From Mesostigma viride (Eukaryota; Streptophyta; Mesostigmatophyceae; Mesostigmatales; Mesostigmataceae), in contig RPFO01000853.1 in assembly GCA_009746045.1 (NCBI GenBank), forward strand, positions 1 to 64,000: 64,000 nucleotides of DNA, in the 5' to 3' direction. Below, in pieces: positions 2-64,000 of the stretch (position 1 is the stretch's first letter; every line of letters starts with the position of its first letter). The translations under genes and the position numbers were made by a program. The notes beneath the pieces are model-generated. The model was not told the origin of the DNA. It did not search any database and was given only the letters and a program-made list of their open reading frames with translations.

Positions 2-1738
2 CAGCAGGACCCTCTGGCAGGTCAGAGGGTCCAACCTCAGCCGCAGGCTCCCCCGCCCAGCGTGGGGGGCCAGGTGGCTGAGGAGGCCACCGGGGTCGCA
101 GGGACCCCGGCGGCGACACAAGCGCCCGGGGTCGCAGGGACCCCGGCAGCGACGCCGGCGCCTCCGGCGCTGGCGGGGGATGCAGCCCCCATGGAGGGTG
201 TCACGGGCACCTCCAGCGGCTCTGGGGGGCAGGCCCCCTCTAGCCGCAACAAGGACAAGCCCTGGCAGGGCCGGAGGGGCCCAGGGTCCCACCGCAGCTG
301 GGCAGCAACCAGCACTGCTGGAGGGCGACCTGCAAGGTCGCGACTTCATCACCCTGGTGATGAGGCCGTGTGGCGTGCCATACAGACAGCCACAGCCTCC
401 TTCCGTGGGCTGGCCGACAGGAGCCAGCAGATGCACGTCGCGGAGGCGGGCAGCCTGGTGTGTGCAATCATCACGCACATCCTGGGCCTGCCCAACCTCC
501 AAGCGGGCACACGTAGGGTGTGCGACGACCTGCTGCCTGCCCTGCAGGCTCTCCTCTCAGGGAGGAGGGTGCAGGGCAGCAGGGTGCGTCTGGTGCGTTT
601 GCTGGAGCTCCTGCACAACGCCATCCTGAGAGGGGCGGGTAGGTGGCTAACTCTGCCTACCTGGTTGCATCATGATCTTACTAACCCTACTGACGATGAA
701 GTGTCCCTCTCTCCCACCTTCCATGATTGGGAGGAGGCCCGCAGCAGGAGGCGGGAAGTGACACACACTCACACCCCCACCCAGCCCACCCCTATGTTGT
801 CTAACCCTCCTACACAGCCCATGTTTGCCCATCCTGCTCAGCTCACTCAAGTAGCACTTCCCTCTCAGCAGGTCTCTCCTGTGAATGCTGCAGCAGCAAC
901 ACCATCTTCTCCCTCTCCCCCTGCATCCCCCTCTAGGTTGCCCACTTACAATGAAAACCGTCCTGTGGATAGGATTAATGTCAGGGGGCTGCCTGAGGGG
1001 TATACTAGGGAGCAGGGGAATCATGCACTTCTCTCTCTGCAGCTGGCTAGGGAGGAACTGAATGTCAAGAATTGGTTTGGATCTCTCATGCAGGGGGATT
1101 TCTACCATCAGTCCTCTTCTCAGATTCAGAATCTCATTCTTGTCTTCCAGCGTAGGTATCCCAAGTGGCAGGACACGCAGGCTAGGGCAGTTTGGGAGGC
1201 TTTCATGAAGGAGCTAACTGACCTCCTCTCCACCCCCTCATCTGTGGACATATATGGGGCATTCAGGTGGGTAGAGGAATACAGGGTCACATCAGTGGAC
1301 TATGTGGCTGAGACAAAGAAATATGAGCTAGCCATCAAAGCACGTCCTGATGTCCAGCAGCTAGATCACAAGTTCTTGCTGCGTTCCTTCCTTGAGAAAC
1401 TCAAACTTGACAAAAACACCTACGCTATGCTTGCCACAGGAATGGCAAAGTACTGGGAGGACATGAAGGAGGCATTGGATTATATCAAGCTGGCCTTGGC
1501 TCCCCTTAGCCAGGGGGCCATGGGCACCTCTGTAAAGAGGGTCAGGGGGGAAGAGAGGGAGGAGGAGGATAGGGAGAGGGAAGACAGGAGCAAGAGACCT
1601 GTCACTATGGCAGAAGTCAAGTCCCTGCTGGGACAAATGTTTAAGGGCAAGGGCAAGGGCAAGGGCAAGGGCAAGGGCAGGGGCTGGGGCAAGGGCAAGG
1701 GTAAGGGGCAGTCTCCCTCCAAGGGGGGCAGCTCCAGC

Positions 1739-1815
<77 letters not shown>

Positions 1816-3040
1816 GAAGCAGGACAAGGAGGACAAGTCTTCTCAGCGGTGCACCCGCTGTGGCATGAAGTACCACCTGCGGCCCACCTGCCGCAAGAAC
1901 GTGGACGAGCTGGGGCATTTGGACGTCCTGTGCCACAAGTGCCACGGGCCGCCCCACGGTGACCCCAAGGACTGCAAGCGGCCTCCTTACGGCAAGAAGT
2001 GTGAGTCTCCCTCTCATGCTGGCTTGAGTGTGCCTGCTTCACCTCTTTCATCTGCATGCCCCACTGTCAGAGCAGTGAGCAGTTCTGGAAAGGTGCTACA
2101 GCTGGTTTCAGAAGATTATGTCTCTAAACCAACCTTCACATCTATGGTTCCCAAGGTGTGCAGAGTGTCCCCAGCAGAGGATGCTCAGATCAGTTTTCAG
2201 GAGCTTGCTTTGCAGTTGCATTTCCTTTATGGGCATGAAGTGAGTGCAGAGGTGGTGGCAGCAGCAATAGGGGGGGCAGCACTCAGACGTGCATGCCAGG
2301 TGGTCAGATCCCACTGCCAGCATTGTCAGTTCAATGCACCCAAACCCCCTAAGTGGCATGTAGCTACCCCACCTAAGAGCAAGGGCAGGGTGGTAGGAGA
2401 TGTCTTTCATATCAAAGGACAATCTTACTTGGCACTTAAAGATGCATGGTCAAGGTACACAACCATTGAACCATTACCTGGAATGGACAAGACACAGTTG
2501 CTCAGGGCTCTCTTGATTGCTCAGGCCAGGTACTACCCTGTGGAGGCATTGTTACTGGATCAGCAGTTCACGTGTCTTGCCAATGAACCAGGGTGTGAGG
2601 CTATTGATCTGGCTGGGCTAGAAGATCATGAGAGGCAAGGCATTATTGAAAGGGCCATCAGGTCCATTAAAACCCTTGTAGCCAAAGAAGATGGCAATCT
2701 GCTGGCTGACAGTGGGTCATATGCTGACAGAGCTCTGTGGTCCACCAGGTTGTGCCAAGTCCTCAACAGGAGGCCACTCATGAAAACCCCACAAGGGGTG
2801 GTCATTACACCAGATGGATTGCATGCAGGCATTTATCCACCTGAGGTACTAGCCCTATACAACGCACAGCGAGCACAGACAGCTAGCAGGTTAGCTGTCA
2901 AGGATGCAAAGCATCCACGTCCCACCTTCAGAGAAGGGGATCAGGTCCTATTCTACAAGGAGTCGGGACTAGGCAAGGTGGGTACCTGGCATGGGCCAGC
3001 CACCATCCTAAATTTAACACCACTGGCAGGACAGTGTTAG
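2..3040 (+). CDS. Ty1/copia retrotransposon Gag-integrase ORF (5' end outside window)
   Basis: The first half of a copia-type polyprotein, open to the left window edge, so the true start is not visible; the first in-frame ATG is near 190. In order it has a low-complexity Pro/Ala/Gly N-terminus, a Gag-like helical region (about 960-1520), a Lys-Gly repeat (about 1640-1710), a run of about 26 Asn codons, and Cys-rich knuckles beginning CTRC (about 1850-1975). Integrase follows: an HHCC-like zinc segment (about 2215-2325, ending CQHC), then candidate catalytic residues D in GDVFHI, D in LLLDQQF and E in GIIERAIRSI. A basic SH3-like end (FREGDQVLFY) runs into the stop. No protease motif lies between the knuckle and the integrase, where copia elements normally have it. 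The frame ends inside the SH3-like domain, whose continuation is in the next, overlapping frame. Family assignment is confident; activity is doubtful. Confidence 0.85.
1738..1815 (+). repeat. (AAC)n microsatellite inside the gag ORF
   Basis: A pure AAC run encoding polyasparagine, directly after a degenerate AAGGGC run that encodes Lys-Gly repeats. It keeps the frame. The antisense poly-Val, poly-Leu and poly-Cys frames across it are artefacts. Confidence 0.9.
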
Positions 3041-5556
3041 TTAAACACAATGACACGGGAAAGATTCACAGGTGTTCACCTCACAGGATGAAATTGTATT
3101 TTCCAACTGTGTCAGACGTGGCAGAGGAGGAAGAGCTGTTGGCCGACAGCCCTGTACAGTTGCCTGGCATCCCAGCGTTGCCCAGTGAGTGGTTGTTTGG
3201 AACACCCACTGGTGAGTGTGAGAGCCACACCCACTGTGACACCCAGGTCACCCTTGATGATTGCAGGCAGTCACTGCAGGCTTGGCCCCCTGCAGCAGAG
3301 GGTCACATTGGCAAAACAGGTGATCAGCAACCTATCACCTCTTCAAGTGTGAACATAGCTCAGCCACTAGCTGCACCTTCCAAACGCAGCCTAGCAGACG
3401 CTGTTCGCATTTTACAAGCAGCTCATAGAGCTAAAGCTCAAACTGCTGCAGGATCAGCTAAGGTGGGGAAGGTTGGGCAGAATGACAATAGCCCATTTAT
3501 GGTTGCAGTGGACACACAAGCCCAGGTCAGCATTATCAGTGCCCTGGCTGTGCCCCATATGCCTTTGGAACCTTCACCCTGGCACCATGTGGCTGATTTC
3601 TCAGGGCAGTCATCCCTCAAGGTATTAGGTCAGGTCATGTTGACTATACTCGGTATCCCACTCCTTTTCAGGTCTTGGAAGGTTATAAAGGGAATGCTTT
3701 TGGGGGATCCTTTTCTATGTTACCCTGGTGTTCTCATCTCCAGTGATAGACTCTCCATCCAGGACATGGGGGGTGTTGATTTGAATCATTTTAAAATTTC
3801 TCTTGAAAAACTTCTTAACACCAACATTGCTTCTGTAAAATTTGCTACACCCAAGTATGCCCCAGGGCAAGAACCCTGTGTGGCAGATTTGGTTCACAAC
3901 CAAAAACTTCATCCCAACTCATTTGGATTGGGCAAGCATGATGTGGCTAAAATGTCTCCTCTTTCTTATGAACAGATAGAGAAAGACTGTCGCACACACA
4001 TAGGATTCCTAAAATGGGTGGAGGCCTTCAACAAGGCCAGGGAAGAATGGGTAGTGCCAGATCCTCTTAGTCCTTCTCATACTCCACCTGTCACACCTAT
4101 TGACAAAAAGCCTGCAGGGTGCAAGCATTTGCGTCTGAAGTTTGTGTGCAAACATAAGCCAGCAGCAGATGGGTCAGTCATTTTTCATGCTAGACCTTGT
4201 GTGACAGAGTTCAAGGGCACCACTGATCTGACAGAGGCAGAGTTGTACACGCCAGGCATTCAGCAAACATCCCTAAAAATCTTGCTGTCTGTCTTTGTGG
4301 GTCATCTCAATGATGGGGATGATTATGTATGTAAGGCTACAGACATTAAAAGGGCTTTCTTGAAAGGCTCACCTGAGATAGCACAACAAGTGTGGCATGG
4401 TCAGGTGTATGTAGTCACCACTCCCAGAGTTTGGGCAAAACACATCCCTCAGCAGTACCTGAAAGCTAACATAGGTGTTGAAGGGCTGCAATCAGCTCCT
4501 CGCATTTTCAGGATGTCAGCTCAGGCTGTGTTTGAAAAGCTAGGGGCTAGATATGATGACATAGACCCTTGCTTCTTTGTGGTTCCACACCCTCATGGCA
4601 TACTCACCTTTGTGTGGCATGGGGATGATCAGCTGATTGCTGGGCCAAGGCGTGCTGTAGATGATTTTATTCAACAAGTGTCACAGCATTTTGAGATTGG
4701 CAAGCAAGTAGAGCTGGGCACCACTGCCATAAAATTTTGTGGCACAATGTTACAACTCCAGCAGCATCAAAACCAGTGGGTGTGTGCACTCTATTCTCCC
4801 AATGATTACATGCACAGCTGCTTGGAGGTTTTGCAAACAAAAATCAAACCTGGAGCCTGTCCTACCATTAGAGGCAAGCTGGGGTGGTTGTGCTCAACGT
4901 GTGCACCTCACCTGGCTGTGGTTAGCAGAGTTGATGATGATGTCTTGATGCAAGTAGGTCACAAAGCCATCACCAAAACTCTCCAGGAAGGCCCTCCCCT
5001 TATCTTGCACTCCTTGGATCTCCACAAAACCATTCACATCCAAGCTATGATGGATAGTTCCATGGAGTCCAGGCAGATTACAAAGATGCAGGCAAGGGAG
5101 TCAGGCTTGTATTTTGTGCAGAATGATGATGCACCCTTGTCTCTCATTTCATGGTACAGCCGGTTGCATAGACGCAAGGCTGTCAGCAGCAATGCTGCTG
5201 AGTGCAGGGCAGTGGTGTCAGCAGTGCTTCATGCCAGGTACTTGAATCATGTGCTGGTTTGGTTGCAGATGCAAGCAGGCAGCAATGCTGGGGTGGTGGC
5301 ACACTTGCTCACTGACAGTCAGTCAGTCCTCAGTTTCCTTGCTAACCCCTATGCTGTCCACACTGATCTTGACTGGGTGGTCCTGAAACAGGAGTCCACC
5401 TACTGGGAGTCCACCCGTCACGTGGAGGACAAACACAACGCTGCTGATGCACTCACTAAAGTGCCTCAGCAGGCAGCTGAACAATATCAGCTGTTGTACC
5501 ACTTGATGAACCCCTATGGCAAGCAGGCAACCCTGCCCCATAGGGGGGACGCCTAG
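3034..5556 (+). CDS. Ty1/copia protease-reverse transcriptase-RNase H ORF
   Basis: The second half of the copia polyprotein, overlapping the first ORF by 7 bp in another frame. Its first ~25 residues (VLVKHNDTGKIHR...) complete the integrase C-terminal domain, so the two frames were once one or are joined by frameshifting. A retropepsin-like domain follows (about residues 150-245): VDTQAQVSIIS at the active-site position, then the flap and the GMLLGDPFL strand. The usual DTG is DTQ. Reverse transcriptase covers about residues 330-620, with TDIKRAFLKG (motif A Asp), GLQSAPRIF, and WHGDDQLIAG in place of the usual YVDD. RNase H H1 lies at about 700-820, with SSNAAECRAV, LLTDSQSV and the ADALTK end typical of copia. 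No stop interrupts the 840 codons. The order IN-PR-RT-RH differs from the canonical PR-IN-RT-RH. Confidence 0.87.
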   Translation: MLVKHNDTGKIHRCSPHRMKLYFPTVSDVAEEEELLADSPVQLPGIPALPSEWLFGTPTGECESHTHCDTQVTLDDCRQSLQAWPPAAEGHIGKTGDQQPITSSSVNIAQPLAAPSKRSLADAVRILQAAHRAKAQTAAGSAKVGKVGQNDNSPFMVAVDTQAQVSIISALAVPHMPLEPSPWHHVADFSGQSSLKVLGQVMLTILGIPLLFRSWKVIKGMLLGDPFLCYPGVLISSDRLSIQDMGGVDLNHFKISLEKLLNTNIASVKFATPKYAPGQEPCVADLVHNQKLHPNSFGLGKHDVAKMSPLSYEQIEKDCRTHIGFLKWVEAFNKAREEWVVPDPLSPSHTPPVTPIDKKPAGCKHLRLKFVCKHKPAADGSVIFHARPCVTEFKGTTDLTEAELYTPGIQQTSLKILLSVFVGHLNDGDDYVCKATDIKRAFLKGSPEIAQQVWHGQVYVVTTPRVWAKHIPQQYLKANIGVEGLQSAPRIFRMSAQAVFEKLGARYDDIDPCFFVVPHPHGILTFVWHGDDQLIAGPRRAVDDFIQQVSQHFEIGKQVELGTTAIKFCGTMLQLQQHQNQWVCALYSPNDYMHSCLEVLQTKIKPGACPTIRGKLGWLCSTCAPHLAVVSRVDDDVLMQVGHKAITKTLQEGPPLILHSLDLHKTIHIQAMMDSSMESRQITKMQARESGLYFVQNDDAPLSLISWYSRLHRRKAVSSNAAECRAVVSAVLHARYLNHVLVWLQMQAGSNAGVVAHLLTDSQSVLSFLANPYAVHTDLDWVVLKQESTYWESTRHVEDKHNAADALTKVPQQAAEQYQLLYHLMNPYGKQATLPHRGDA

Positions 5557-35210: not shown

Positions 35211-36685
35211 TTGACCACTTCAAGCAGGACTTTATCATCACGTGTGTTGACAAGAGTGCCAACAACTTTGCTTTCATATGCAAGAAGCACTACCTTGCTA
35301 CTTTGCAACACGAGTTGGCGTCCAGCCCTACCTATGTTCAGCGTGCACAGTCCACCGCCAGTATCACTGCTGCTCATCGGGCTTTTCTGCACAGCCAAAA
35401 CATTTTTGCTCGGGCATTCCTTAAGCGGCAGCGACGCGCCACCACCACTACGTTCCCATATCTGTATCTCACTCTTAAGCTGCACAAAACTCCTGTTGCT
35501 TTGCGCACCATTGCTGCGTCGCATTCAGCCCCACTGATGCCTCTCTCGAAAATCATCTGCCATGCTTTGAATGCTCTTCTCCCCGAAGCCAATGCATTAT
35601 GGGTGGAGGTGATGTCGAATGCCGGGTATGAATGCGCTGGTAGTTGGATCGTCATAGACTCAGCCCAAGTACGCCTACGCCTTGCCGCCCTTAGCCGTTC
35701 TAAGACAGCAGCAGAGAAACGTATACCTATGCCCATAGCCACCTATGATTTCACCACTCTATATACCACACTAGATTTGCACGATTTGAAAGCTCGTTTA
35801 GATAGCCTCCTTACTCGTCTGTATGCACGTAGGCCTCACGGGCGCAACCACCTGCACGTGCGTGTTTCTCAGACCAAGCCCACGGCAACGTGGCTCTCAG
35901 GGATCGCGGCAGGTGCTATCGTGCGGGATGGTTATAATTATATTATCACGAAGGCTGACCTTGTCCATTGGATCTCTTATCTTGTTGATAACACCTTCAT
36001 CTGTTTTGCGGGCAATGTATACCAACAAGCTATCGGCATCCCTATGGGCACTAACTGTGCCGGGCTCCTTGCAAACCTCTATCTATACACTTATGAGCTT
36101 GCATTCATGGAGAATCTCATTGCCTCAAACGATGATGTTCTCATCAGGCGTTTTATCCATACATGTCGATACATTGATGATGTCATCGCTTTCGACAACC
36201 CTGATTTCGCAACCCATTTGTATATCACCGCTGGTCTGCCTGGCATCTACCCGCAAGCGTCCCTCACATTAAAGCTCACGTCGGAGGATACTCATTGCAA
36301 TTACCTCGATCTTAACATTACCCATAACAAGAAGGGCTGGCGTACGGCTGTCTATGATAAGCGCAAGGATCCTAAATACCAGCAAATTCCTTTTATTCGT
36401 TACCCCGATATTCACAGTCTCCTTTCCCACACAGCAAAATATGGTGTTGTTCTTTCTCAGTTACATCGTTTTTCCCGTCTTTGTTCTTATCGTGTTGATT
36501 TCATCACGACTCTTGTTGAACTCTTGCAGCGTTTATTGGTCAAAGACTATGACCGAGCCATTATGCTCCGTCAAGTCCGATGTTTTTTGCAACGTCACCC
36601 ACATCTGTTCGGTGCTGCCCCTTGGCACAAGCTCTACAAACAGGTCGTGGACCGGCTGGATCGCATAGTATCTCCGCACATCTGA
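35211..36685 (+). pseudogene. Penelope-like reverse transcriptase, 5'-truncated
   Basis: A 1475-bp open frame without interruption but lacking its N-terminus; translation is open from about 35211, and the track ATG-like start at 35303 is a TTG. Near the start it has VDKSANNFAFICKKHYL, an early RT motif. GIPMGTNCAGLLANLYLYTYE (about 36040) and CRYIDDVIAFDN (about 36165) are motifs B' and C, YIDD being catalytic. SYLDLN-like and YDKRKDP segments follow, then a helical C-terminus ending IVSPHI. This combination is typical of Penelope-like elements and their relatives. No GIY-YIG endonuclease is visible on either side; in green-algal types it would be N-terminal, in the missing part. The upstream edge is a GAATT run joined to LINE sequence. 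Confidence 0.75.
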
Positions 36686-51742: not shown

Positions 51743-53512
51743 CTAGAACTTGAAATCCTTGAGCTTCTTGCTCTTGGCATCCTTGTCTTTTTGCATCGCC
51801 TTCCGCTTTCTCTTGGCAGCATCCTGGGAGGTAAACAGACACAAAGGCAAAGCGGGCGTAGGGCAAACGGGCATGTTGTGAGATGACCAGCGAAAGAAAT
51901 GCTCGCCTAACTACTACAGGGCCGATGTCAGGTGCCTTCATGAACGTGGTCAACCTGGGAAAACTAGGAACAATGCTGAGGCCATCGCTTTTTACGTGGG
52001 TGGATTAATCAATTAATGGGCGGATTAATCAATGGACAGATTAATTTACTCGTCCTCGGGTTGGGGAGTCACGGAGTTTTAACCCTGATGGATGGATGGA
52101 TCTCTGGCCCCCATGTCCTCCACAAGTTTCTCCATGAACATGAGGGCCTGACGGCGTCTAACATTGCTTGGCCCATGCCATGTGAGAAGGTGCCTGCCAG
52201 GCTAGGCGTGCCGCAACCTTGCGGCTGGGCCACAAGAGTGCGTGGGCGGATACCCAATCCAACCTGCAGTACTCTATCCACGGGAGCAGAACATAGGCTG
52301 CTACCACCATGCTCACTGGGGGGAGAAGAAGAACCCTGACACACAAAATCATGGGTGAAATCCCCACACATCCATGCTTACCTCCGCCACCATGTCGTCA
52401 AAAACCTTGCTTACCTCCGCCACCATGTCGCTGAAATCGAGCGCCGACTTCTCCTGCTGCTGCGCCGCCATCTCGGCGGTACGCGCGGCCTTGTACCTGG
52501 CGGGTATGGCCAGGGTGGGCGGCATCAGCCGCAGAGGAAGAAAGCGGGAGGGGGGGGGGGGGGGGGGGGGGGAGGGCAGAAGACATTGACAACGAAGGCA
52601 TTCAGAAAAATGAGCTGATCGTACTTGGTGGACAACACGTCTGAACTGTTACGCCTGCTAGAAAGACCTCAGGCCGTAGCAACAACATCGGCACAAAGGC
52701 CAGCTGTGGTGACTAGAACAAGTGGTGATGGACACAAGTTCACACTTCACAAGCCAGCTGTGGTCACCATGGGCAAACGAGACAACCATCCCAAATGATT
52801 ACCATCTGGCCAGCTGCAGTCACTGTAACAGATATTCATTGCACCCACATGCTGGCCAGCTCAAATCACAAACCACAAAAGGTGGTGGTCCCTGTAGTGA
52901 GGTGGTTATTACAAAAAGCGGCAGCCATTTTGAAAGTGCGCCCACTCGTTGCCACCTGCAGTCACGTCAATATAGAGTATATTGTTGGGTCGGTATAACA
53001 AACAGTGCACCTACCAGCTGCGGTATTTGAACAAGAGCAATGGTAACTATCATCAATACTAAACAAGCGCACACGCTTGCTGGCCAGCTGTGGTCACAAT
53101 ACGAGTGATATCATCAATCATATTATCATCGCCCACTTGCTGGCCTGCCGTGGCTATTAGAGCTACACTAAACAGGGGCACCCACTTGCTGGCCAGCTGC
53201 GTGTCGTCCAGCCCTTCGAGCTCCTCCGGGCGCAGCGTGATGTCCACGCGGTCCTTCTCGCGCGCCTTGTCCTTGGCGGGCGCGCCAGCCGCGGCCCCTG
53301 CGGCCGCCGCCGCCTGTGTGGAATGGAGGGAGAGCCAGGAGAGGAGGGAAAGACGATGAGAGGGGAAGGAAGCAAGGGGGCGACGGGGGGGGGGGGGGGG
53401 GCAGATGAGAAATGGTCCCAACAGCGCAACTAGGAAGTGCGTGTATTCAATGGTGGCCATTCTCAGCAGATCATGGGCCACCCCAGCCCTGCCCATATGA
53501 TGCCCATCGTGT

Positions 53513-53560
<48 letters not shown>

Positions 53561-56500
53561 TGGTGATGGGGGAAGGGCGCCTATTTATGTTTAGATTGGC
53601 TAGGCAGCAGGTCTGTCAGCTGGGCTGAAGGACAGGGCGCGTGCTCGGGCAACGCCCTGGTGGGACAGGGGTGATGAGAGAGAAAGCCAGGTAGGCAACT
53701 CCTAAACCTAAGCAGTAGACACGTGGCATAGGCAATGCCCAGCGGACCAGGCTGCTAATCCTTTGCTACCTGCAATCATCAAGCAACACGTGCCTTTTTT
53801 TCTCTGTCTGCTGGTTTCGTTGCTATTTAAAAAACAGGTTGCCTTGCAAAGCTTTGATGCGACCATGTACTCATCATGCTCTTGCCATCAGCATGCATGA
53901 ACTCATGCACCGCTCCTGCCTTCAAACGCTGCGCTAGGCAAAAGTGGGCCCACGATAATGGCTTGGACGCGAACTTGAACCAGTGACTCGAATCACGATG
54001 TCTAACTATTCTACAACTTGGTGCAAGTGGGAGCATGGGTCACCCAGCGGAAGCGAGCAAACAAACAAACAAACAAACAAACAAACAAACAAACAAACAA
54101 ACCAACAAACCAACAAACCAACAAACCAACAAACCAACAAACCAACAAACCGACAAACCGACAAACCGACAAACCGACAAACCGACAAACCGACAAACCG
54201 ACAAACCGACAAACCGACCAACCGACCAACCGACCAACCGACCAACCGACCAACCGACCAACCGACCAACCGACCAACCGACCAACCGACCAACCGACCA
54301 ACCGACCAACCGACCAACCGACCAACCGACCAACCGACCAACCGACCAACCGACCAACCGACCAACCGACCAACCGACCAACCGACCAACCGACCAACCG
54401 ACCAACCGACCAACCGACCAACCGACCAACCGACCAACCGACCAACCGACCAACCGACCAACCGACCAACCGACCAACCGACCAACCGACCAACCGACCA
54501 ACCGACCAACCGACCAACCGACCAACCGACCAACCGACCAACCGACCAACCGACCAACCGACCAACCGACCAACCGACCAACCGACCAACCGACCAACCG
54601 ACCAACCGACCAACCGACCAACCGACCAACCGACCAACCGACCAACCGACCAACCGACCAACCGACCAACCGACCAACCGACCAACCGACCAACCGACCA
54701 ACCGACCAACCGACCAACCGACCAACCGACCAACCGACCAACCGACCAACCGACCAACCGACCAACCGACCAACCGACCAACCGACCAACCGACCAACCG
54801 ACCAACCGACCAACCGACCAACCGACCAACCGACCAACCGACCAACCGACCAACCGACCAACCGACCAACCGACCAACCGACCAACCGACCAACCGACCA
54901 ACCGACCAACCGACCAACCGACCAACCGACCAACCGACCAACCGACCAACCGACCAACCGACCAACCGACCAACCGACCAACCGACCAACCGACCAACCG
55001 ACCAACCAACCGACCAACCGACCAACCGACCAACCGACCAACCGACCAACCGACCAACCGACCAACCGACCAACCGACCAACCGACCAACCGACCAACCG
55101 ACCAACCGACCAACCGACCAACCGACCAACCGACCAACCGACCAACCGACCAACCGACCAACCGACCAACCGACCAACCGACCAACCGACCAACCGACCA
55201 ACCGACCAACCGACCAACCGACCAACCGACCAACCGACCAACCGACCAACCGACCAACCGACCAACCGACCAACCGACCAACCGACCAACCGACCAACCG
55301 ACCAACCGACCAACCGACCAACCGACCAACCGACCAACCGACCAACCGACCAACCGACCAACCGACCAACCGACCAACCGACCAACCGACCAACCGACCA
55401 ACCGACCAACCGACCAACCGACCAACCGACCAACCGACCAACCGACCAACCGACCAACCGACCAACCGACCAACCGACCAACCGACCAACCGACCAACCG
55501 ACCAACCGACCAACCGACCAACCGACCAACCGACCAACCGACCAACCGACCAACCGACCAACCGACCAACCGACCAACCGACCAACCGACCAACCGACCA
55601 ACCGACCAACCGACCAACCGACCAACCGACCAACCGACCAACCGACCAACCGACCAACCGACCAACCGACCAACCGACCAACCGACCAACCGACCAACCG
55701 ACCAACCGACCAACCGACCAACCGACCAACCGACCAACCGACCAACCGACCAACCGACCAACCGACCAACCGACCAACCGACCAACCGACCAACCGACCA
55801 ACCGACCAACCGACCAACCGACCAACCGACCAACCGACCAACCGACCAACCGACCAACCGACCAACCGACCAACCGACCAACCGACCAACCGACCAACCG
55901 ACCAACCGACCAACCGACCAACCGACCCACCGACCCACCGACCCACCGACCCACCGACCCACCGACCCACCGACCCACCGACCCACCGACCCACCGACCC
56001 ACCGACCCACCGACCCACCGACCCACCGACCCACCGACCCACCGACCCACCGACCCACCGACCCACCGACCGACCGACCCACCGACCGACCGACCCACCG
56101 ACCGACCGACCCACCGACCGACCGACCCACCGACCGACCCACCGACCCACCGACCCACCGACCCACCGACCCACCGACCCACCGACCCACCGACCCACCG
56201 ACCGACCCACCGACCGACCCACCGACCGACCCACCGACCGACCCACCGACCGACCGACCGACCGACCGACCGACCGACCGACGGACCGACGGACCGACCG
56301 CCCGCCCGCCCGCCCGCCCGCCCGCCCGCCCGCCGCCCGCCCGCCCGACGGACCGCCCGACGGACCGCCCGACGGACCGCCCGACGGACCGCCCGCCCGC
56401 CCGCCCGCCCGCCCGCCGCCCGCCCGCCCGCCCGCCCGCCCGCCCGCCCGCCGCCCGCCCGCCCGCCCGCCCGCCCGCCGCCCGCCCGCCCGCCCGCCGC

Positions 56501-59500
56501 CCGCCCGCCCGCCCGCCCGCCCGCCCGCCCGCCCGCCGCCGCGCCCGCGCGCCCGCCCGCGCGCCCGCCCGCGCCCGCCGCGCGCGCGCCCGCCCGCGCG
56601 CCCGCCCGCGCGCCCGCGCGCCCGCGCGCCCGCGCGCCGCGCGCCCCGCGCGCCCGCGCGCACGCGCGAACGCGCGAACGCGCGAACGCGCGAACGCGCG
56701 AACGCGCGAACGCGCGAACGCGCGAACGCGCGAACGCGCGAACGCGCGAACGCACGAACGCACGAACGCACGAACGCACGAACGCACGAACGCACGAACG
56801 CACGAACGCACGAACGCACGAACGCACGAACGCACGAACGCACGAACGCACGAACGCACGAACGCACGAACGCACGAACGCACGAACGCACGAACGCACG
56901 AACGCACGAACGCACGAACGCACGAACGCACGAACGCACGAACGCACGAACGAACGAACGAACGAACGAACGAACGAACGAACGAACGAACGAACGAACG
57001 AACGAACGAACGAACGAACGAACGAACGAACGAACGAACGAACGAACGAACGAACGAACGAACGAACGAACGAACGAACGAACGAACGAACGAACGAACG
57101 AACGAACGAACGAACGAACGAACGAACGAACGAACGAACGAACGAACGAACGAACGAACGAACGAACGAACGAACGAACGAACGAACGAACGAACGAACG
57201 AACGAACGAACGAACGAACGAACGAACGAACGAACGAACGAACGAACGAACGAACGAACGAACGAACGAACGAACGAACGAACAAACAAACAAACAAACG
57301 AACAAACAAACAAACAAACAAACAAACAAACAAACAAACAAACAAACAAACAAACAAACAAACAAACAAACAAACAAACAAACAAACAAACAAACAAACA
57401 AACAAACAAACAAACAAGCAAGCGAAAATTACCTTCTTGGCTCCGGGCACCACGTATCTGCAGGGAAGCAGGCCCAAGGTTGCATAGGCACCGATGTAGA
57501 TGGCAGGCACCGGTGCAGGTGGCAGGCACGCGGAGACACATGACGCAACGAAAGGAAAAAAGGAACAAGGATAACACCGCCACATGGCGTTAGTGAGCCG
57601 CACACAGAGAGGAGCGTATCTGCAAAGTTTTAAAACGGAAAAAGACGCTAAAGGGCATAGCGTTGCGGATCCGCACAGATCACCCCCAAGCCAAGAAGGC
57701 AGAGATTATTAATAGAGAAAACGTACTACAAATCAGCGGATGTCCTGTGAATCCCAGCAATGCCCCATCGTCTACTAATTCTTCCAGCCCTGCCATTCAT
57801 GTGTGCTATGCCCTTCCCCCCCCCCCCCCCCCCCCCGCTAACCACTCAAGTGTGCACCCCCCCCCCAACAACCGCTCATGTCCTGACGAATACAATTCTT
57901 CTCCCCTTTCTCCACCCCCCACCCCCACCCTGCTGATCGCTCACGTGTGCGCTGTGCAAAATCTTCTGACCCCCCACAACCACGCACATGCCCGATTCAT
58001 CGGTTTTATGTCCCACGTCCCCCAACCACTCACGTGTGCGCTGTGCCCATGAGGTCGCCCTCCCCCACATGGCTCTCCCTCGTCTCCAGAACGTGGAACA
58101 GCGGCGGAGGCGCCTCGTCCTCGCCCTCCTTGCGCCCAGCCTTGCGGAGGTCGATGACGTCTGGCGTCTGTACACCCGACGGCATGCTGCTTGGTGGCAA
58201 CAGTTGGAATCGGTGGCAATTGGTGGCTATGATTGGCAATTAGTGACAATAGGTGGCAACAGGTGGCACTTGGTGGCAATTGTTGGAAATTGTTGGCCAT
58301 GGTTGCTAATCGTAGGCATTCAAACCGGCGATTCGTAGCGCCTGTTGGCAATGGTCGGCAACCATTGGGGAGGGGCAGGGCCATAGTTGTTGATTGTCAG
58401 TGGGTAACAAAGCACCACGTAAGGATGGCCAGAAGACGCGAAAGCAACAAATACCCTGGGAGGAGAATGGGGCTCGCAATGCATGAGGCAGCACAAACAC
58501 CATACCACCAGCTCTCGCTTACGCAAACGGAACAAGATACGTTACCACCGAGCTACCAACCTGGTTGTTTCGCCCACGTTAGGGGTGACTGCGTGCGGAC
58601 CAGCAACCATATGCCAAGCCAAGCCAAGCCAAACGATACCCACTTTCATTTGCATAGATGAAGGGACATCGGTGGCTAATTGATTGACAAGCGTAGCAGT
58701 GACCAGCCGGAGCAGCACAGGCAACACATTGTCGATAAGGCAAGAGGCAGCGAATCAAAGAGACAGACATCCACCCACCAGCTGTCGCAGGCGCAAGCAA
58801 GCCACACGCTTCATGGACAATTTACTTTTCATACCAGTAAATTCTTATTCGTGCGGCAGGAGTCTCATGGCCCATGCATCCAACCCACCTGGCCATGCAG
58901 TTCCCCGTTGCCATGCACCTGTGTGTGTGTGTGTGTGCCCCTAGTTCCCAACTATTAGGCGGTTCCCACCAAGATTAATGTGTAGAATGCCCATCTATTG
59001 ATATTTCCCACTGGACACACATATCTACCTGGACATGGAGTCCGCCTATGTACCTATCTATCCACCTGGACACAGAATGGCCACCTATATCCGCCCACCT
59101 GGACATGGAGTCCACCGATGCCATCCCGGCCGCCATCTCGTCCTCCCCAAGCTCGTCCTCCTCCTGATGAACGAAACAGCGCAACGAAACAGAAGAAAAA
59201 GCAAAGGCAGACAACACGCCAAGGAAGACGAGGGAGGACAGGGCAGCGGTGAGACCATATGATAAGCTACACACGGCTCGTCCTCCTGTTGAAAGAAAAA
59301 AAAGTTAAGCAGCATGCCAAGCACGTCGTGATAAGCGACGGCTCCGGAAGGCAACCGCCTTGTTGGATTGTGAAGGGGGTTGGCTTGTGACAATGTTGAA
59401 GGGAAAGATAGGGGGGCAGCGCATCAGACGAAAGGATCATAGACTGTGGATATGACACGCTAGAGCCAGCTCGCCCTCCTACCAACAGCTCGTCCTCTTC

Positions 59501-62500
59501 CTCATGAAGCTTAGAGATGATGGTCATGATGCTTCCCACACAAGGCAAACAACACGCCAATGGAGGTGGGCGGATGGCTACGTTAAGTGATAGAATATGG
59601 ACGGAATCAAACCCATAGAGACCGAGGCACCGCGTAACGTTTCCTGACATGTAACACTGGACACAGAGGTGCTTCGAAAGTACAATGCACCATGTGATCG
59701 ACTCGAGTATGGTACCAAAAACCTCAAAGTCGCGGCCGGAAGCATGAACGAGCAGGGCAGCAATCCCTGCCTGGACAAACATGTTGGCCGCAAGCATGGA
59801 CAAGCTGGACACAGGAGCACGTGTATCCATGGGAGATTGGCCAGGCGCCTCGCGCTACAAAAAGCCTGGGTCAAACAGTCAAGGAAGCACACAGCTGGAG
59901 GCGGCGCGTTGCCACAAAGAGAGGATATGATCCTCATCACACGCCTTGATCACAGAGGATATGGTCCACTTGCACGAGCTGACACTACACAGCCTTTGTG
60001 TGCGCAAGGGAAGGCGAGCAAGAGAGAAATAATGGCATGGGAAACTGGGGTCGAGGCAAAATCACCCCGCTGCTCCCATGGTGGTCCCCGCACAGGTGGG
60101 AAGCGATGTGCCCTTTAACAGGGCGGGGGCGACGACAGGGATGCGACCATGATGTCTGAGAAAGAGACTTCAGGTTGTGACCTTTTGCTGTTGGGGTTTT
60201 GGGACTACGGGCGCAGTAACAGTGGACAAGGGAGCAGGGGCGGCATACCAGGGGACACGGCTGCGGTGATGATGCCTGGTTGGGATGCGAAGGGCCATGA
60301 CGTTTCTACCGCTTAGTATGACAGCCCCTTCAACAGTTTGCTGTGGCAGCGAGGGACTGCTGCCACCCGTAATTAGGGAACAGGGAAAGGTACGGTATCC
60401 CTACGCATACTCTTCAGTATCCAAGCACTATCCCTACGCATACTCTTCAGTATCCAAGCACTAGGAGGAACTTTACCTCCTCCTCGCTCTCCTCCTCTTC
60501 CTCCTCCTCCTCCGACTCGTGCAGCTCCCCCCACGGCTCCTTGTCCACGGCTTGCTGTTGGTGGGGGTGGCAAAAACGACGTTGTCATAAAGATAGTGTT
60601 TAAGAGATCCATAGAAACGCTTGTGTCAATGGCTCATTGTCCGCCAGTGATGAATGTGACTGATGCCAAGCAGCGGAGCAGGGGGGGCCGGGGGGGGCGG
60701 GGCGGGAGGGGGGGCGGGGGCGACCAATATCGTTATCAAGGTAGATAGGAATCCGACCCAACCATGTTGGCGTTATCGGAATGAATGTGAGCAGTATCCT
60801 CCAGTAAGTGGGGGGGGAGAGGAGGGGGGGCGATACAAGGGGAGACGGAGCGGTCGGCTGGACAAGGCCAAAGGGTGTGGAAAGCACGCACAGGAAGTAA
60901 CTACTACATAAGGGTGTGTTCGTGTGAGGTACGTGACGCTGCCACAAGTGCGGCAGGGTTGGCCATCCTTTGTTAGCACAAGAGATAGGTACAAATCCTT
61001 CGACCAGCAGGTCAGGTTATACTCTCCACAAGCCAATACACAATGCGCAAGCACTCCTGTGGTGGCAGAGGGAGGCGAGGCCGGATGGGAAGGCCACGCG
61101 TGGGGTGTAGGTAGGGTGGAGCGGGTGAAGCAAGCACCGAGCAAGGAGTGGCGTGCGAGGTCAAAGCGCTGTGCGTGTCAGTGTGTCAGGGGCACTGAAA
61201 TGGGTCCACCAATCGCCGCCCGTGGCATACGTTGCTGGTGAAGAAATTGTCGTGCGAGAGATTCATGGTATGCTATCAAGGCATAGGCAGCCCGTGGTGA
61301 CTGGGGAAGGGGAGGGGAAGGTGAACGGGAAGGGGAAGGGGAAGGGGAACTATGAATGGCCTCCAGGGTGGGGCGGACTGAGGAGGCATCGACTTTGGGG
61401 AGGCACGGAGGGGCGCTGTGGAATTTGGTACAAAGGGTTGTACGCTTCTCAAGGCGACCCTTTTGTTGTTCAGGGGGATAGCACTTGCTGTGAAAGGGAC
61501 CGCAGAATCATGATGCCTACTGGCATCCGCGAATCCCAGACAACTACATCTAGCCATAACAGAGGCAAAACACCCCGCCAAACACAGTAGGAGTTATTGT
61601 GCCGAAACTGCGGTGGCCACGACCACCACAGTCGCATACTATAACGAAATTGGCAATTGCTCCCATTTATCCGATGATTAGGACCTTCTCAATGCAAACA
61701 CTTCAGCTATGAACAGGGACTTCCCAAAAGAATTGTTCTACGACATCTGCTGCCGATACACTAGTGATAACATACAAAAACCACAAAGTGTCAACATACA
61801 ACCATGAAAAGATGATTGACAACAACAACAACAAAATGATAAAATACAACCGTTTTGTACAACAACCGTTAAGGGTACTCGCGCGATCCCTTGATGGTTG
61901 ATGGTTGATGGTTGATGGTTGATGGTTGATGGTTGATGGTTGATGGTTGATGGTTGATGGTTGATGGTTGATGGTTGATGGTTGATGGTTGATGGTTGAT
62001 GGTTGATGGTGGATGGTGGATGGTTGATGGTTGATGGTTGATGGTTGATGGTTGATGGTTGATGGTTGATGGTTGATGGTTGATGGTTGATGGTTGATGG
62101 TTGATGGTTGATGGTTGATGGTTGATGGTTGATGGTTGATGGTTGATGGTTGATGGTTGATGGTTGATGGTTGATGGTTGATGGTTGATGCTAACCAATC
62201 ATGTGGCGACAACGTTCAGGCAACTGAATGCTTCCTTTGACAAGGGATAATTCTGGCACATTGGAGCCTAGGGCCAATCCCAGGAGATCATTGAATGCCA
62301 TTCTACTTACTTAAACGATGGTGCCATTAAACTACTTTAATGGCATTTACCTAACTAGTTTGATGCAAATAAAATAAGTTGCGTTCAAGTCCTGTGGCAT
62401 CCGGCAACACTGAAACTAACTGAACATACCATAACACTGAAACTTACTGAGCATCCAGTACCCACAAAACCAACTGGGCATACCTTCTGGTCATCCTCAT

Positions 62501-63270
62501 CATCCCCTGCCGCAAAGACGTCGCCATACAGCGGCCGCCCAAACTGTGATCAAGCCAAGAGGAGGCGGTGGAGGGGCACAAAGAAATAGTTCATGGGGCG
62601 GGGTGCAGGGTGTGTAAATAAAAAAGGCACTGATAGGGACCATGCGCGAAAACGGGGCAAATGATTAAAACAGGGACGGAAGAGCTTGTCAGTGCTAGCC
62701 CTTGAAATTCTCCCACAACCCCCCCCCCGCCGCTCCAAGAAAAAGGCGACCAAATAAAGCAGAAGAAAGACCACACGTAGCAAGCACTCGCAGCAGGGTA
62801 CTCCCTGCTTCATGCATGCCCACTTCGCCGCTTCAGATCCTCCCCCATTACAACACCGTGCCCAGCAGAGAGCCAACTCACACTCACGGAAAGCCAGATC
62901 ACTATTCGACGCGCCCAACTAGCTAGTTTACCTCCTCACCATGCACAAGACCATGCCCAACGCCACACAAAACCATTCACAAGACCATGCCCAAACGATG
63001 GCTAAACAGCCCATCGTTGGAACACGCCCACCCAACCAGCCAGCTCACCTCATCCACGGGCGGTTTGCCCCACCCGCCCACGTGGTACCCAAACGATGCG
63101 CCCTCAGGGATAGGCGCGTTGAGACCCGGGATTTTCAGCGCTGGGTAAGCCGGAGGGGGCCCGTAGCGCTGCATGTTGATCAGCCAGGGGGGCGGGTGGC
63201 CCTCCGGCATGCCCAGCGCCGCGCGCAGCTCCTCTGAGATCTCGCCAGGTGTCTTCTTGACCATGACCGG
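51743..63270 (-). CDS. SF3B2: Splicing factor 3B subunit 2 (SAP145), 3' part of the gene
   Basis: SF3B2 is part of the SF3b complex of U2 snRNP and contacts pre-mRNA near the branch site. Exons in transcription order: 63270-63049 (PPPWLINMQRYGPPPAYP, LKIPGLNAPIPEG, GGWGKPPVDE), 62543-62484 (FGRPLYGDVF, then acidic), 60554-60477 (EPWGELHES and an acidic run), 59163-59099 (GMASVDSMS), 58186-58034 (PSGVQTPDVIDLRK), 57457-57433 (25 nt, YVVPGAKK), 53313-53186 (VDITLRPEELEG), 52496-52415 (LDFSDMVAE) and 51823-51743 (ending KKLKDFKF, TAG). Phases join correctly throughout. A possible 18-nt acidic exon lies at 59500-59483. The N-terminal exons, including any SAP domain and the first part of DUF382, are past the right edge. 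About 300 codons are visible. The order and end of the protein match the family, and the Asp in TPDVIDLRK is plant-like. Confidence 0.9.
52382..52414 (-). other. SF3B2: Alternative in-frame SF3B2 donor created by a 33-bp duplication
   Basis: The end of the DFSDMVAE exon and its donor (ATGGTGGCGGAG|GTAAGC) is repeated 33 bp downstream, giving a second donor after 52382. Using it would add 11 codons (VSKVFDDMVAE) without a frameshift. Confidence 0.6.
52551..52572 (-). repeat. Poly-C tract on the SF3B2 transcript strand
   Basis: A G run on the plus strand, hence a C run in the transcript, about 55-75 nt upstream of the 52496 acceptor. Confidence 0.7.
52690..53185 (-). repeat. Degenerate repeats of an SF3B2 exon end within the next intron
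   Basis: The sequence around the exon end at 53186 (cccacttgctggccagctg on the plus strand, including the donor) recurs in weakened form downstream in the transcript, near 53126, 53070, 52845, 52810 and 52760, at irregular 40-220-bp spacing. It looks like an old tandem repeat seeded by the exon-intron junction. Confidence 0.55.
53513..53559. repeat. (GT)n microsatellite in an SF3B2 intron
   Basis: About 23 GT units in the 4.1-kb intron between the 25-nt exon and the exon at 53313. Confidence 0.9.
54057..57424. repeat. Graded tetranucleotide/8-mer array in an SF3B2 intron
   Basis: 3.4 kb of 4-bp periodic sequence made of successive homogeneous blocks: AAAC (54057-54100), AAACCAAC (to ~54150), AAACCGAC (to ~54215), CAACCGAC (to ~55923, the largest), CCACCGAC (to ~56067), a CGAC/CCAC mixture (to ~56280), CCGC and GC-only sequence (to ~56660), GCGCGAAC (to ~56750), GCACGAAC (to ~56949), GAAC (to ~57282) and AAAC again. 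Most adjacent blocks differ by one substitution. Stops are rare, so nearly all frames are open for over 1100 codons; none is a gene. Confidence 0.95.
57798..58046 (-). repeat. Repeated SF3B2 exon-end/donor copies at the start of an intron
   Basis: The real exon end and donor (ctcacgtgtgcgctgtgc on the plus strand, 58029-58046) recurs exactly at 57940-57957, and in decayed form near 57868, 57843 and 57798. The intron start is thus a degenerate tandem repeat of its own 5' splice site region. Confidence 0.6.
59022..59110 (-). repeat. Duplicated SF3B2 exon end with donor
   Basis: acctggacatggagtcc, the plus-strand image of the exon end at 59099 (ACTCCATGTCCAG|GT), is repeated at about 59032. A partial third copy, cacctggacacagaatgg, lies between them. 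Confidence 0.6.
60396..60461. repeat. 33-bp perfect tandem duplication
   Basis: Two copies starting tatccctacgcatactc, 15 bp from the SF3B2 donor at 60477. The length is a multiple of 3, but the segment is intronic. Confidence 0.85.
61893..62189. repeat. (GATGGTT)n heptanucleotide array in an SF3B2 intron
   Basis: About 42 copies of a 7-bp unit with two variant units (gatggtg) near 62005. The INHQPST-repeat open frames on the minus strand come from this array. Confidence 0.95.
62414..62488 (-). repeat. Degenerate donor-region repeats after the SF3B2 exon at 62484
   Basis: aactgggcatacc at the real donor is matched by aactgaacatacc and actgagcatccag further into the intron, i.e. GGTATGCCCAGTT-like copies on the transcript strand. 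Confidence 0.5.
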
Positions 63271-63591
63271 CTGCAGACCGAGAGGTGAGGGCCAGGGAGC
63301 CGGAGAAGGAAAGGATGCGTGAGCAGATGGGAGTTGAGAGAAGCTTAACCCCAACCCCAACCCCATACCTATACCCTACAGAAAAAGTGAGCAGAAGAAA
63401 GGGGGGGGAGAAAAGCGGTTGGGGTGGGGAGTCACGCAGCGAGGTTATCAGCTAGACTTTCCATCAACATCATGACTAGTCACCAGCGCCTCCCACCTCC
63501 CACCCATTTTACCACCGCTGAGCTCCCCACCACGGGCTTTTGCCAAGCCATCCACGGCCCCCATCCCGAATGTGCCCCTTTACCCCACCCC

Positions 63592-64000
63592 ACCCTCAAT
63601 GACCGTGCCCAACCCCACCCTAAATGACCGTGCCCAACCCCACCCTAAATGACCGTGCCCCACCCCACCCTAAATGACCGTGCCCAACCCCACCCTAAAT
63701 GACCGTGCCCAACCCCACCCTAAATGACCGTGCCCAACCCCACCCTAAATGACCGTGCCCAACCCCACCCTAAATGACCGTGCCCAACCCCACCCTCAAT
63801 GACCGTGCCCAACCCCACCCTCAATGACCGTGCCCAACCCCACCCTAAATGACCGTGCCCAACCCCACCCTAAATGACCGTGCCCCACCCCACCCTAAAT
63901 GACCGTGCCCAACCCCACCCTAAATGACCGTGCCCAACCCCACCCTAAATGACCGTGCCCAACCCCACCCTCAATGACCGTGCCCAACCCCACCCTCAAT
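63592..64000. repeat. 25-bp minisatellite, cut by the window end
   Basis: At least 16 copies of a unit containing tgaccgtgcccaacccc, with C/A variation at one position (ctcaatg versus ctaaatg) and an occasional ccc for aac. It lies in the intron upstream of the first visible SF3B2 exon and continues past the right edge. Confidence 0.95.

What the first reader, a model, noticed from the sequence alone, without database searches (positions are those of the whole stretch)
54057..57424. Array that evolved as a chain of 8-mers, mostly one substitution apart
Each homogeneous block can mostly be obtained from its neighbour by one base change in the 8-bp unit, beginning and ending at AAAC: AAACAAAC, AAACCAAC, AAACCGAC, CAACCGAC, CCACCGAC, CGACCGAC, a GC-only centre, then GCGCGAAC, GCACGAAC, GAAC, AAAC. 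The last step needs two changes per 8-mer. This looks like repeated cycles of mutation followed by local expansion, with the oldest unit pushed to both edges. Such an ordered record in 3.4 kb is rare.
Basis: seen in the sequence. Interest (0 to 1): 0.88.

Follow-up and report, generated by a model that had tools for sequence, protein, structure and literature searches.

The report
Stepwise-evolved repeat ladder inside an intron
A 3.4-kilobase run of four- and eight-letter DNA repeats, sitting in an intron of a splicing-factor gene, changes by about one letter from block to block and carries the same simple repeat at both ends; it is a long, unusually orderly example of a known kind of repeat evolution, and the same genome holds relatives of it.

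Summary
Window 54059-57423 is one compound microsatellite with no T on the + strand (T-free 54041-57428, 3388 bp; next longest in the window 106 bp). Neighbouring blocks are one substitution apart in 12 of 14 steps (0 of 20000 shuffles as many). GC rises from AAAC at both edges to a GC-only centre.

The window's own 440-Mb genome holds relatives. All 4 of 4 arrays with a GAAC/AAAC junction (window included) have AAAC at both edges. Another locus repeats the ladder AAAC, GAAC, GCACGAAC, GCGCGAAC. This supports AAAC as the ancestral unit. Simple nesting fails: the two arms share no intermediate, and two nested-expansion rules gave the observed form in 0 of 20000 runs each.

One-mutation neighbours are the published rule for compound microsatellites (PMC2644718). 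Unusual here are the length, order, GC-ward direction and kept edges; other arrays in this genome follow the GC trend only in part. Mechanism and read support are untested.

The parts
54059..57423 (.). whole compound tetra-/octanucleotide array; no T on the + strand
54059..54102 (+). AAAC x11, left edge block
54103..54150 (+). (CAAC AAAC) x6
54151..54214 (+). (CGAC AAAC) x8
54215..55926 (+). (CGAC CAAC) x99 then (CAAC CGAC) x115, the largest block; one extra CAAC word at the join
55927..56282 (+). (CCAC CGAC) x18, then mixed CGAC/CCAC higher-order units, then CGAC x9
56283..56659 (+). GC-richest centre: GGAC-CGAC, CGCC/GCCC/GCGC words with 3- and 5-base irregularities, CGAC-GGAC-CGCC x4; 3-tetrad quadruplex motifs on the minus strand
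56660..56951 (+). right arm: one GCAC word, (GCGC GAAC) x11, (GCAC GAAC) x25
56952..57283 (+). GAAC x83
57284..57415 (+). AAAC x4, GAAC x1, AAAC x28: right edge block
57416..57423 (+). AAGC x2, margin
53314..57432 (-). intron of the SF3B2 gene holding the array (4119 bp; GT at 57432-57431, AG at 53315-53314)
   Evidence: splice sites read by eye; exon order
57433..57457 (-). SF3B2 exon just 5' of the array (ends GAKK)
53186..53313 (-). SF3B2 exon just 3' of the array (DRVDITLRPEELEGLDD); 3' limit read by eye
58034..58186 (-). SF3B2 exon (TPDVIDLRK ... GTAHT)
63049..63270 (-). SF3B2 exon with the PSP domain (PF04046, E 1.3e-24)
51746..51832 (-). SF3B2 last exon, C-terminus KDFKF; 5' limit approximate

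Best explanation
It is a compound microsatellite that grew inside an ordinary (AAAC)n tract in an SF3B2 intron. Shown here: the block order in the assembly, the intronic setting, and other loci of the same genome that keep AAAC at both edges. Inferred: a unit inside the tract gained a substitution (mostly A to C or A to G), the changed unit was multiplied locally by slippage or repair synthesis, and the next change arose at the inner end of the newest block, so older units were left at the margins. Because the two arms differ, I take the inner junction, now the GC-only centre, as the recurrent site of breakage or fork stalling: both broken ends are re-extended on their own repeats, with occasional errors, and rejoined. 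Variants richer in G and C would form stronger hairpins or quadruplexes and keep the break point there. The intron is presumably spliced out, so I assume no function for the array.
For: One-step neighbours in 12 of 14 steps, and in 60 of 71 steps over 18 arrays of the same genome as cut by script, which truncated the window array and reduced C1657 to one block. AAAC at both edges in 4 of 4 arrays found by a GAAC/AAAC junction; the search selects one edge, not the other. The same series of units at another locus, C1106. In 8 loci, 13 A-B-A triplets: inner GC higher in 9, equal in 4, lower in 0 (counted from its rows). GC rises inward on both arms of the window; starting from AAAC with a uniform substitution spectrum, 6 and 5 steps that all go to C or G have joint probability 6e-4, and 3e-5 with a twofold AT bias. 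One GC-ward bias would explain both the gradient and the absence of T. A placement rule at the inner junction reproduces the form, by construction.
Against: The edge blocks are pure and the centre is the most irregular part, opposite to a plain age gradient. The steps of the left arm are not the most stable structures among the alternatives, so structure as driver is not shown. In the 12 arrays taken by the CGAC/CAAC junction, A-B-A triplets went up in GC 10 times and down 6 times. In 16 complete arrays the GC maximum lies strictly inside in only 9 by script (11 if the truncated window and a CCCT run in the flank of C2 are corrected). The backward-read control of the GAAC/AAAC junction, which is an AAAC/AAGC-type junction, has 12 places against 4, so GAAC is not the favoured exit from AAAC. 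Kofler 2008 infer that new motifs arise mostly at tract ends.
Confidence: 0.67

Rival explanations
1. Outward growth: a GC-rich array is the ancestor, and each new unit arose at the outer ends by changes toward A until both ends reached AAAC.
For: Kofler 2008 and the work they cite put new motifs and substitutions at tract ends. The irregular centre looks old. All 9 of 9 A-to-C/G steps concern the first A of an A-run (the product of the listed choices is 0.0025, my arithmetic, found after looking); read backwards this means that A-runs grow into the preceding base, as misalignment copying would do.
Against: It needs both ends to stop independently at AAAC, and the arrays at C2, C1801 and C690 to do so too.
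Confidence: 0.14
2. Two alleles with opposite growth were joined by unequal exchange in the GC-only centre, which is why the arms differ.
For: The arms share no intermediate; the centre has 3- and 5-base irregularities; the word phase shifts by one base between the edges (my arithmetic from the positions).
Against: SF3B2 exons follow in order on both sides, so any exchange was between copies of this locus; no one-armed version of this array was seen.
Confidence: 0.1
3. Part of the order is a sequencing or assembly artefact, for example block-wise miscalling of repeats by nanopore basecallers.
For: Nanopore telomere reads are miscalled in blocks as other repeats (PMC9414165, passages). C-run irregularities of the GC-only centre could be read errors. 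Runs of N (gap or withheld, not known which) follow similar arrays at C1106 and C1. The sequencing method is unknown to me.
Against: Both flanks belong to the same gene in order. Loci with different flanks show the same units. The 43-copy TTGATGG array of this window does not drift. Return to AAAC at both edges has no reason in a basecaller (inference).
Confidence: 0.09

Closest known systems
Compound microsatellites born by duplication of imperfections (Kofler et al. 2008, PMC2644718; abstract, sections 3.4 and 3.5 and passages read)
   Same: Neighbouring motifs differ by one mutation (over 90% of cases in print); motif lengths equal or stepwise; very long examples exist (40 members in zebrafish).
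   Different: Here the steps run GC-ward on both arms and the edges keep the parent unit, whereas the paper infers birth mostly at ends and finds about 33% of triple arrays nested.
DM2 CCTG repeat of ZNF9 (PMC3378579; abstract and Discussion read)
   Same: Intronic; a proposed chain of single changes TTTT, TGTG, TCTG, CCTG, also toward G and C in the strand they write.
   Different: Shorter chain, inferred across primates, not kept as ordered blocks on two arms.
SCA37 (ATTTT)n-(ATTTC)n-(ATTTT)n in DAB1 (PMC11043136; passages read)
   Same: Intronic; a one-base variant expanded with its parent unit on both sides, as at C2, C1801 and C690.
   Different: One step only; a human disease allele.
MSY1 block-organised minisatellite (PMC2599865; first of five parts read)
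   Same: Base-substitution variants stand in blocks; mutation often shifts block boundaries.
   Different: 25-bp AT-rich units, simple block structures, no long ladder in the part read.
Layered expansions of centromeric satellites (recalled; only a search listing seen)
   Same: Newer layers inside, older outside.
   Different: Much longer units; older layers are more degenerate (recalled), whereas here the edges are pure.

Membership tests
Compound microsatellite (Kofler 2008) | two or more microsatellites directly adjacent | tested here: met
Compound microsatellite (Kofler 2008) | adjacent motifs differ by a single mutation | tested here: met
   12 of 14 steps; 60 of 71 over 18 arrays as cut by script
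Compound microsatellite (Kofler 2008) | motif lengths equal or stepwise | tested here: met
   4-, 8-, 12- and 16-base units; some 3- and 5-base words in the centre
Compound microsatellite (Kofler 2008) | new motif born mostly at the end of a tract | tested here: inconclusive
   parent unit at both edges in 4 of 4 GAAC arrays; other arrays end in the high-GC unit
Parent-flanked nested expansion (SCA37-like) | variant tract with its parent unit on both sides | tested here: met
   C2, C1801, C690; in the window for AAAC only
Parent-flanked nested expansion (SCA37-like) | repeated nesting leaves the intermediates on both sides | tested here: not met
   window arms share only AAAC; simulation
Layered satellite | older flanking layers are more degenerate (recalled) | tested here: not met
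   edge blocks pure, centre irregular
Intronic repeat expansion | lies inside an intron of a protein gene | tested here: met
Intronic repeat expansion | length varies between individuals | not testable with these tools
   one assembly held, no relatives

The most novel reading that the evidence does not exclude
In this genome AAAC tracts act as seeds of a directional ratchet: new units are born inside the tract, each step adds G or C, and separate loci climb the same ladder (AAAC, GAAC, GCACGAAC, GCGCGAAC), leaving the seed at both edges. The GC-only, quadruplex- and hairpin-prone centre would be a self-made hotspot at which such arrays keep growing.
Probability: 0.25. Interest if true: 0.65.

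Novelty: new member of a known kind. Interest (0 to 1): 0.42.

Why it matters
Repeat units are usually known at one stage only; this locus seems to keep about ten successive stages in order, and other loci of the same genome give replicates of the early stages. That makes the direction and placement of repeat-unit change testable outside human disease loci. If the GC-ward ladder held genome-wide, it would suggest that expansion itself, and not only mutation, is biased toward certain units.

Tried and rejected
Transcription strand as driver: in the window the RNA-sense strand is the G/T strand (SF3B2 on minus). At C1391 the C-rich strand looks like the sense strand of a PAS-like gene (weak: PF13426 E 0.035, below its cut-off; FixL E 0.0011 for two exons joined by me). 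One against one, so strand-based models are not supported.

Structure as selector: ranks of each step among all single substitutions of its parent unit. By summed DNA energy the right-arm steps were beaten by 0 of 11, 2 of 12, 0 of 24, 2 of 24 and 5 of 23 candidates; the left-arm steps by RNA energy were beaten by 4 of 12, 6 of 24, 14 of 24, 11 of 24, 6 of 24 and 2 of 12. The left arm speaks against it; not claimed.

Prokaryote and virus relatives: 68 loci with three CAACCGAC units (2 in viral contigs, 66 in genome contigs). T-free stretches around the first match are at most 500 bp, and the parts printed (up to 170 letters each) show no ordered chain.

Neutral slippage simulation: 0 of 40 runs at each of 4 mutation rates gave 8 or more block types with at most one repeated; parameters are mine, not fitted. 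The newest_edge rule started at an array end and so could not give AAAC at both ends; its 0 of 20000 means nothing.

Random sample: 20 systematic 10-kb stretches of contig C1391 (one with 5499 N) held 0 compound arrays of two or more NNNC-type units, and one compound array of CGTGTGTG type.

Reasoning on flanking AAGC words and on a target-site duplication was dropped as weak.

Because of the control I lowered the novel case from 0.27 to 0.25 and the best explanation from 0.68 to 0.67, and raised the artefact rival from 0.08 to 0.09.
Full report
What is there. Window 54059-57423 is a continuous array of words mostly of the form NNNC on the + strand, with no T in 54041-57428 (3388 bp); the next longest T-free stretch in the window is 106 bp. 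Tandem Repeats Finder splits it into three rows. The word parse gives AAAC, CAAC-AAAC, CGAC-AAAC, CGAC-CAAC (99 and 115 units, 1.7 kb), CCAC-CGAC, a mixed zone, CGAC, GC-only words, GCGC-GAAC, GCAC-GAAC, GAAC (83) and AAAC again.

Chance. Of 500000 random orders of 11 main blocks chosen by me, 14 had as small a total neighbour distance, 136 a single-peaked GC profile and 0 both. For 15 blocks found by script, 12 of 14 neighbours are one step apart, 0 of 20000 shuffles as many. The nine A-to-C or A-to-G steps all concern the first A of an A-run; the product of the listed choices is 0.0025, my arithmetic, found after looking at the data.

Setting. The window's assembly has 439,911,974 bases in 2243 contigs, the window is C1676:1-64000, and no relatives are held. 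On the minus strand I read SF3B2 exons around the array from splice signals by eye; spliceosomal introns make it a eukaryote. One exon has the PSP domain (E 1.3e-24). A 241-residue query of exons joined by me, up to and including the exon after the array, matches human SF3B2 at E 1.8e-56; the match covers query 3-197, that is, up to the exon before the array, residues 603-812. A 111-residue query with the later exons matches residues 814-895 at E 2.8e-7; the matched part, query 27-111, lies wholly in exons after the array. A 62-residue query of the exons directly beside the array found no SF3B2 match, only three unrelated chains at E 0.01 to 1.2. The intron is 53314-57432, 4119 bp, and the array fills 82% of it; nine bases separate the 5' splice site from the last repeat word. 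A green-alga-like host is my guess from recalled features; the protein search that might have named it was switched off.

Relatives in the same genome. The pattern of three CAACCGAC units has 376 forward and 0 reverse matches; read backwards, as control, 35 and 26. The listing stopped inside the window's own array; by my arithmetic about 140 matches lie on later contigs that I did not see. Both other loci listed are compound arrays: C1391, one-step neighbours 5 of 7 (1385 of 20000 shuffles as many), and C1657, 12 of 13 (74 of 20000). C1657 includes ACCT blocks, so lack of T is no rule. The GCAC-GAAC/GAAC junction occurs at three places, control 0. C1106 reads AAAC, GAAC, GTAC-GAAC, GAAC, GCAC-GAAC, GCGC-GAAC, GCAC-GAAC, GGAC-GAAC and then N; C1 reads GAAC with GCAC-GAAC, GAAG and GAGC blocks and then N. 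The GAAC/AAAC junction occurs at four places, and all four arrays have AAAC at both edges: the window, C2 (58 and 29 bp around 355 bp GAAC), C1801 (40 and 30 bp around 2379 bp) and C690 (68 and 26 bp around 6.7 kb of GAAC with a GAGC island). The search selects one edge only. The flanks printed differ from locus to locus. The backward-read control of that junction has 12 places, three times as many; it corresponds to an AAAC/AAGC-type junction, which I did not follow, so GAAC is one exit from AAAC and not the favoured one.

How general is the GC rise. In the 8 loci first collected, 13 A-B-A triplets: inner GC higher in 9, equal in 4, lower in 0. The CGAC/CAAC junction has 36 places, its backward control 27; I took every third row, 12 of 36. 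One-step neighbours were 38 of 45 against a shuffled mean of 25.4, and A-B-A triplets went up in GC 10 times and down 6 times; alternating arrays produce both. Of 16 complete arrays found by a junction, the left end is below the GC maximum in 11, the right end, which the search direction favours, in 14, and both in 9. The script truncated the window array and took a flanking CCCT run as part of C2; correcting both gives 11 of 16. The inward rise is a tendency, strongest in the AAAC/GAAC class, not a law. In 20 systematic 10-kb stretches of C1391 I found no compound array of this type.

Simulation. Nested expansion at any place or inside the newest block gave the observed form in 0 of 20000 runs each. 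Placement at a fixed inner junction gave the form always, by construction. So the asymmetry of the arms is informative: new units were added at the inner ends of both arms, or two alleles were joined.

Structure. With RNA parameters the fold energy of 64-base repeats on the sense strand falls stepwise inward on the right arm and on the left arm as far as CGAC-GGAC; the CGCC unit of the centre is weaker than that unless quadruplexes are counted. With DNA parameters the left arm is flat until CGAC. The centre has 3-tetrad quadruplex motifs on the minus strand. This follows largely from GC content, and a rank test against other substitutions does not show that structure chose the left-arm steps.

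Literature. Kofler 2008 (abstract, sections 3.4 and 3.5 and passages) report that over 90% of neighbouring motifs in compound microsatellites differ by one mutation, that about 33% of triple arrays are nested, that one zebrafish array has 40 members, and infer that births occur mostly at ends. DM2 (abstract and Discussion) and SCA37 (passages) are intronic human parallels. MSY1 (first part of five) shows block structure and boundary shifts. Nanopore block-wise miscalling is documented (passages) and disputed for plant telomeres (passages). In the listings of my nine searches I saw no description of a two-armed GC-ward ladder; that is not proof of absence.

Verdict. As assembled, the array is real and intronic, and it is best read as serial substitution and local expansion from an AAAC tract. 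It is a long and orderly member of a known kind. The polarity (AAAC oldest) is supported by other loci, the placement at an inner junction is inferred, and the driving bias is open.

Noticed in passing
window 5722-29606: A 24-kb minisatellite of 40-bp units, also fitted with 80- and 120-bp periods, with long open frames across it.
   Followed up: no
window 62-5556: Ty1/copia-like element: two long ORFs, RVT_2 match E 1e-9 in the second and a weak rve match (E 0.02, below cut-off) in the first.
   Followed up: no
window 35303-36685: ORF that by eye looks like a Penelope-like reverse transcriptase (YIDDV motif, recalled); no Pfam match.
   Followed up: no
window 61891-62190: TTGATGG x43, nearly pure, with two TGGATGG units; C-free over 300 bp.
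   Followed up: no
window 63583-64000: 25-bp array containing CCCTAAA, running off the window end.
   Followed up: no
L003-L068: 31 of 66 genome-contig hits for CAACCGAC x3 lie in one metagenome-assembled genome, Saprospiraceae SJ15, so this 8-mer is dispersed there in short arrays.
   Followed up: no
L100 from 1795, L102 from 480: Runs of N begin at the end of GAAC-type arrays; assembly gap or withheld letters, not known which.
   Followed up: no
C690:49558-56349 (L104, L107, L109): A GAAC array of 6.8 kb with AAAC edges and one GAGC island, twice as long as the window array (contig coordinates are my arithmetic).
   Followed up: partly
own genome, places not listed: The backward-read control of the GAAC/AAAC junction, an AAAC/AAGC-type junction, has 12 places, more than the junction itself.
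   Followed up: no
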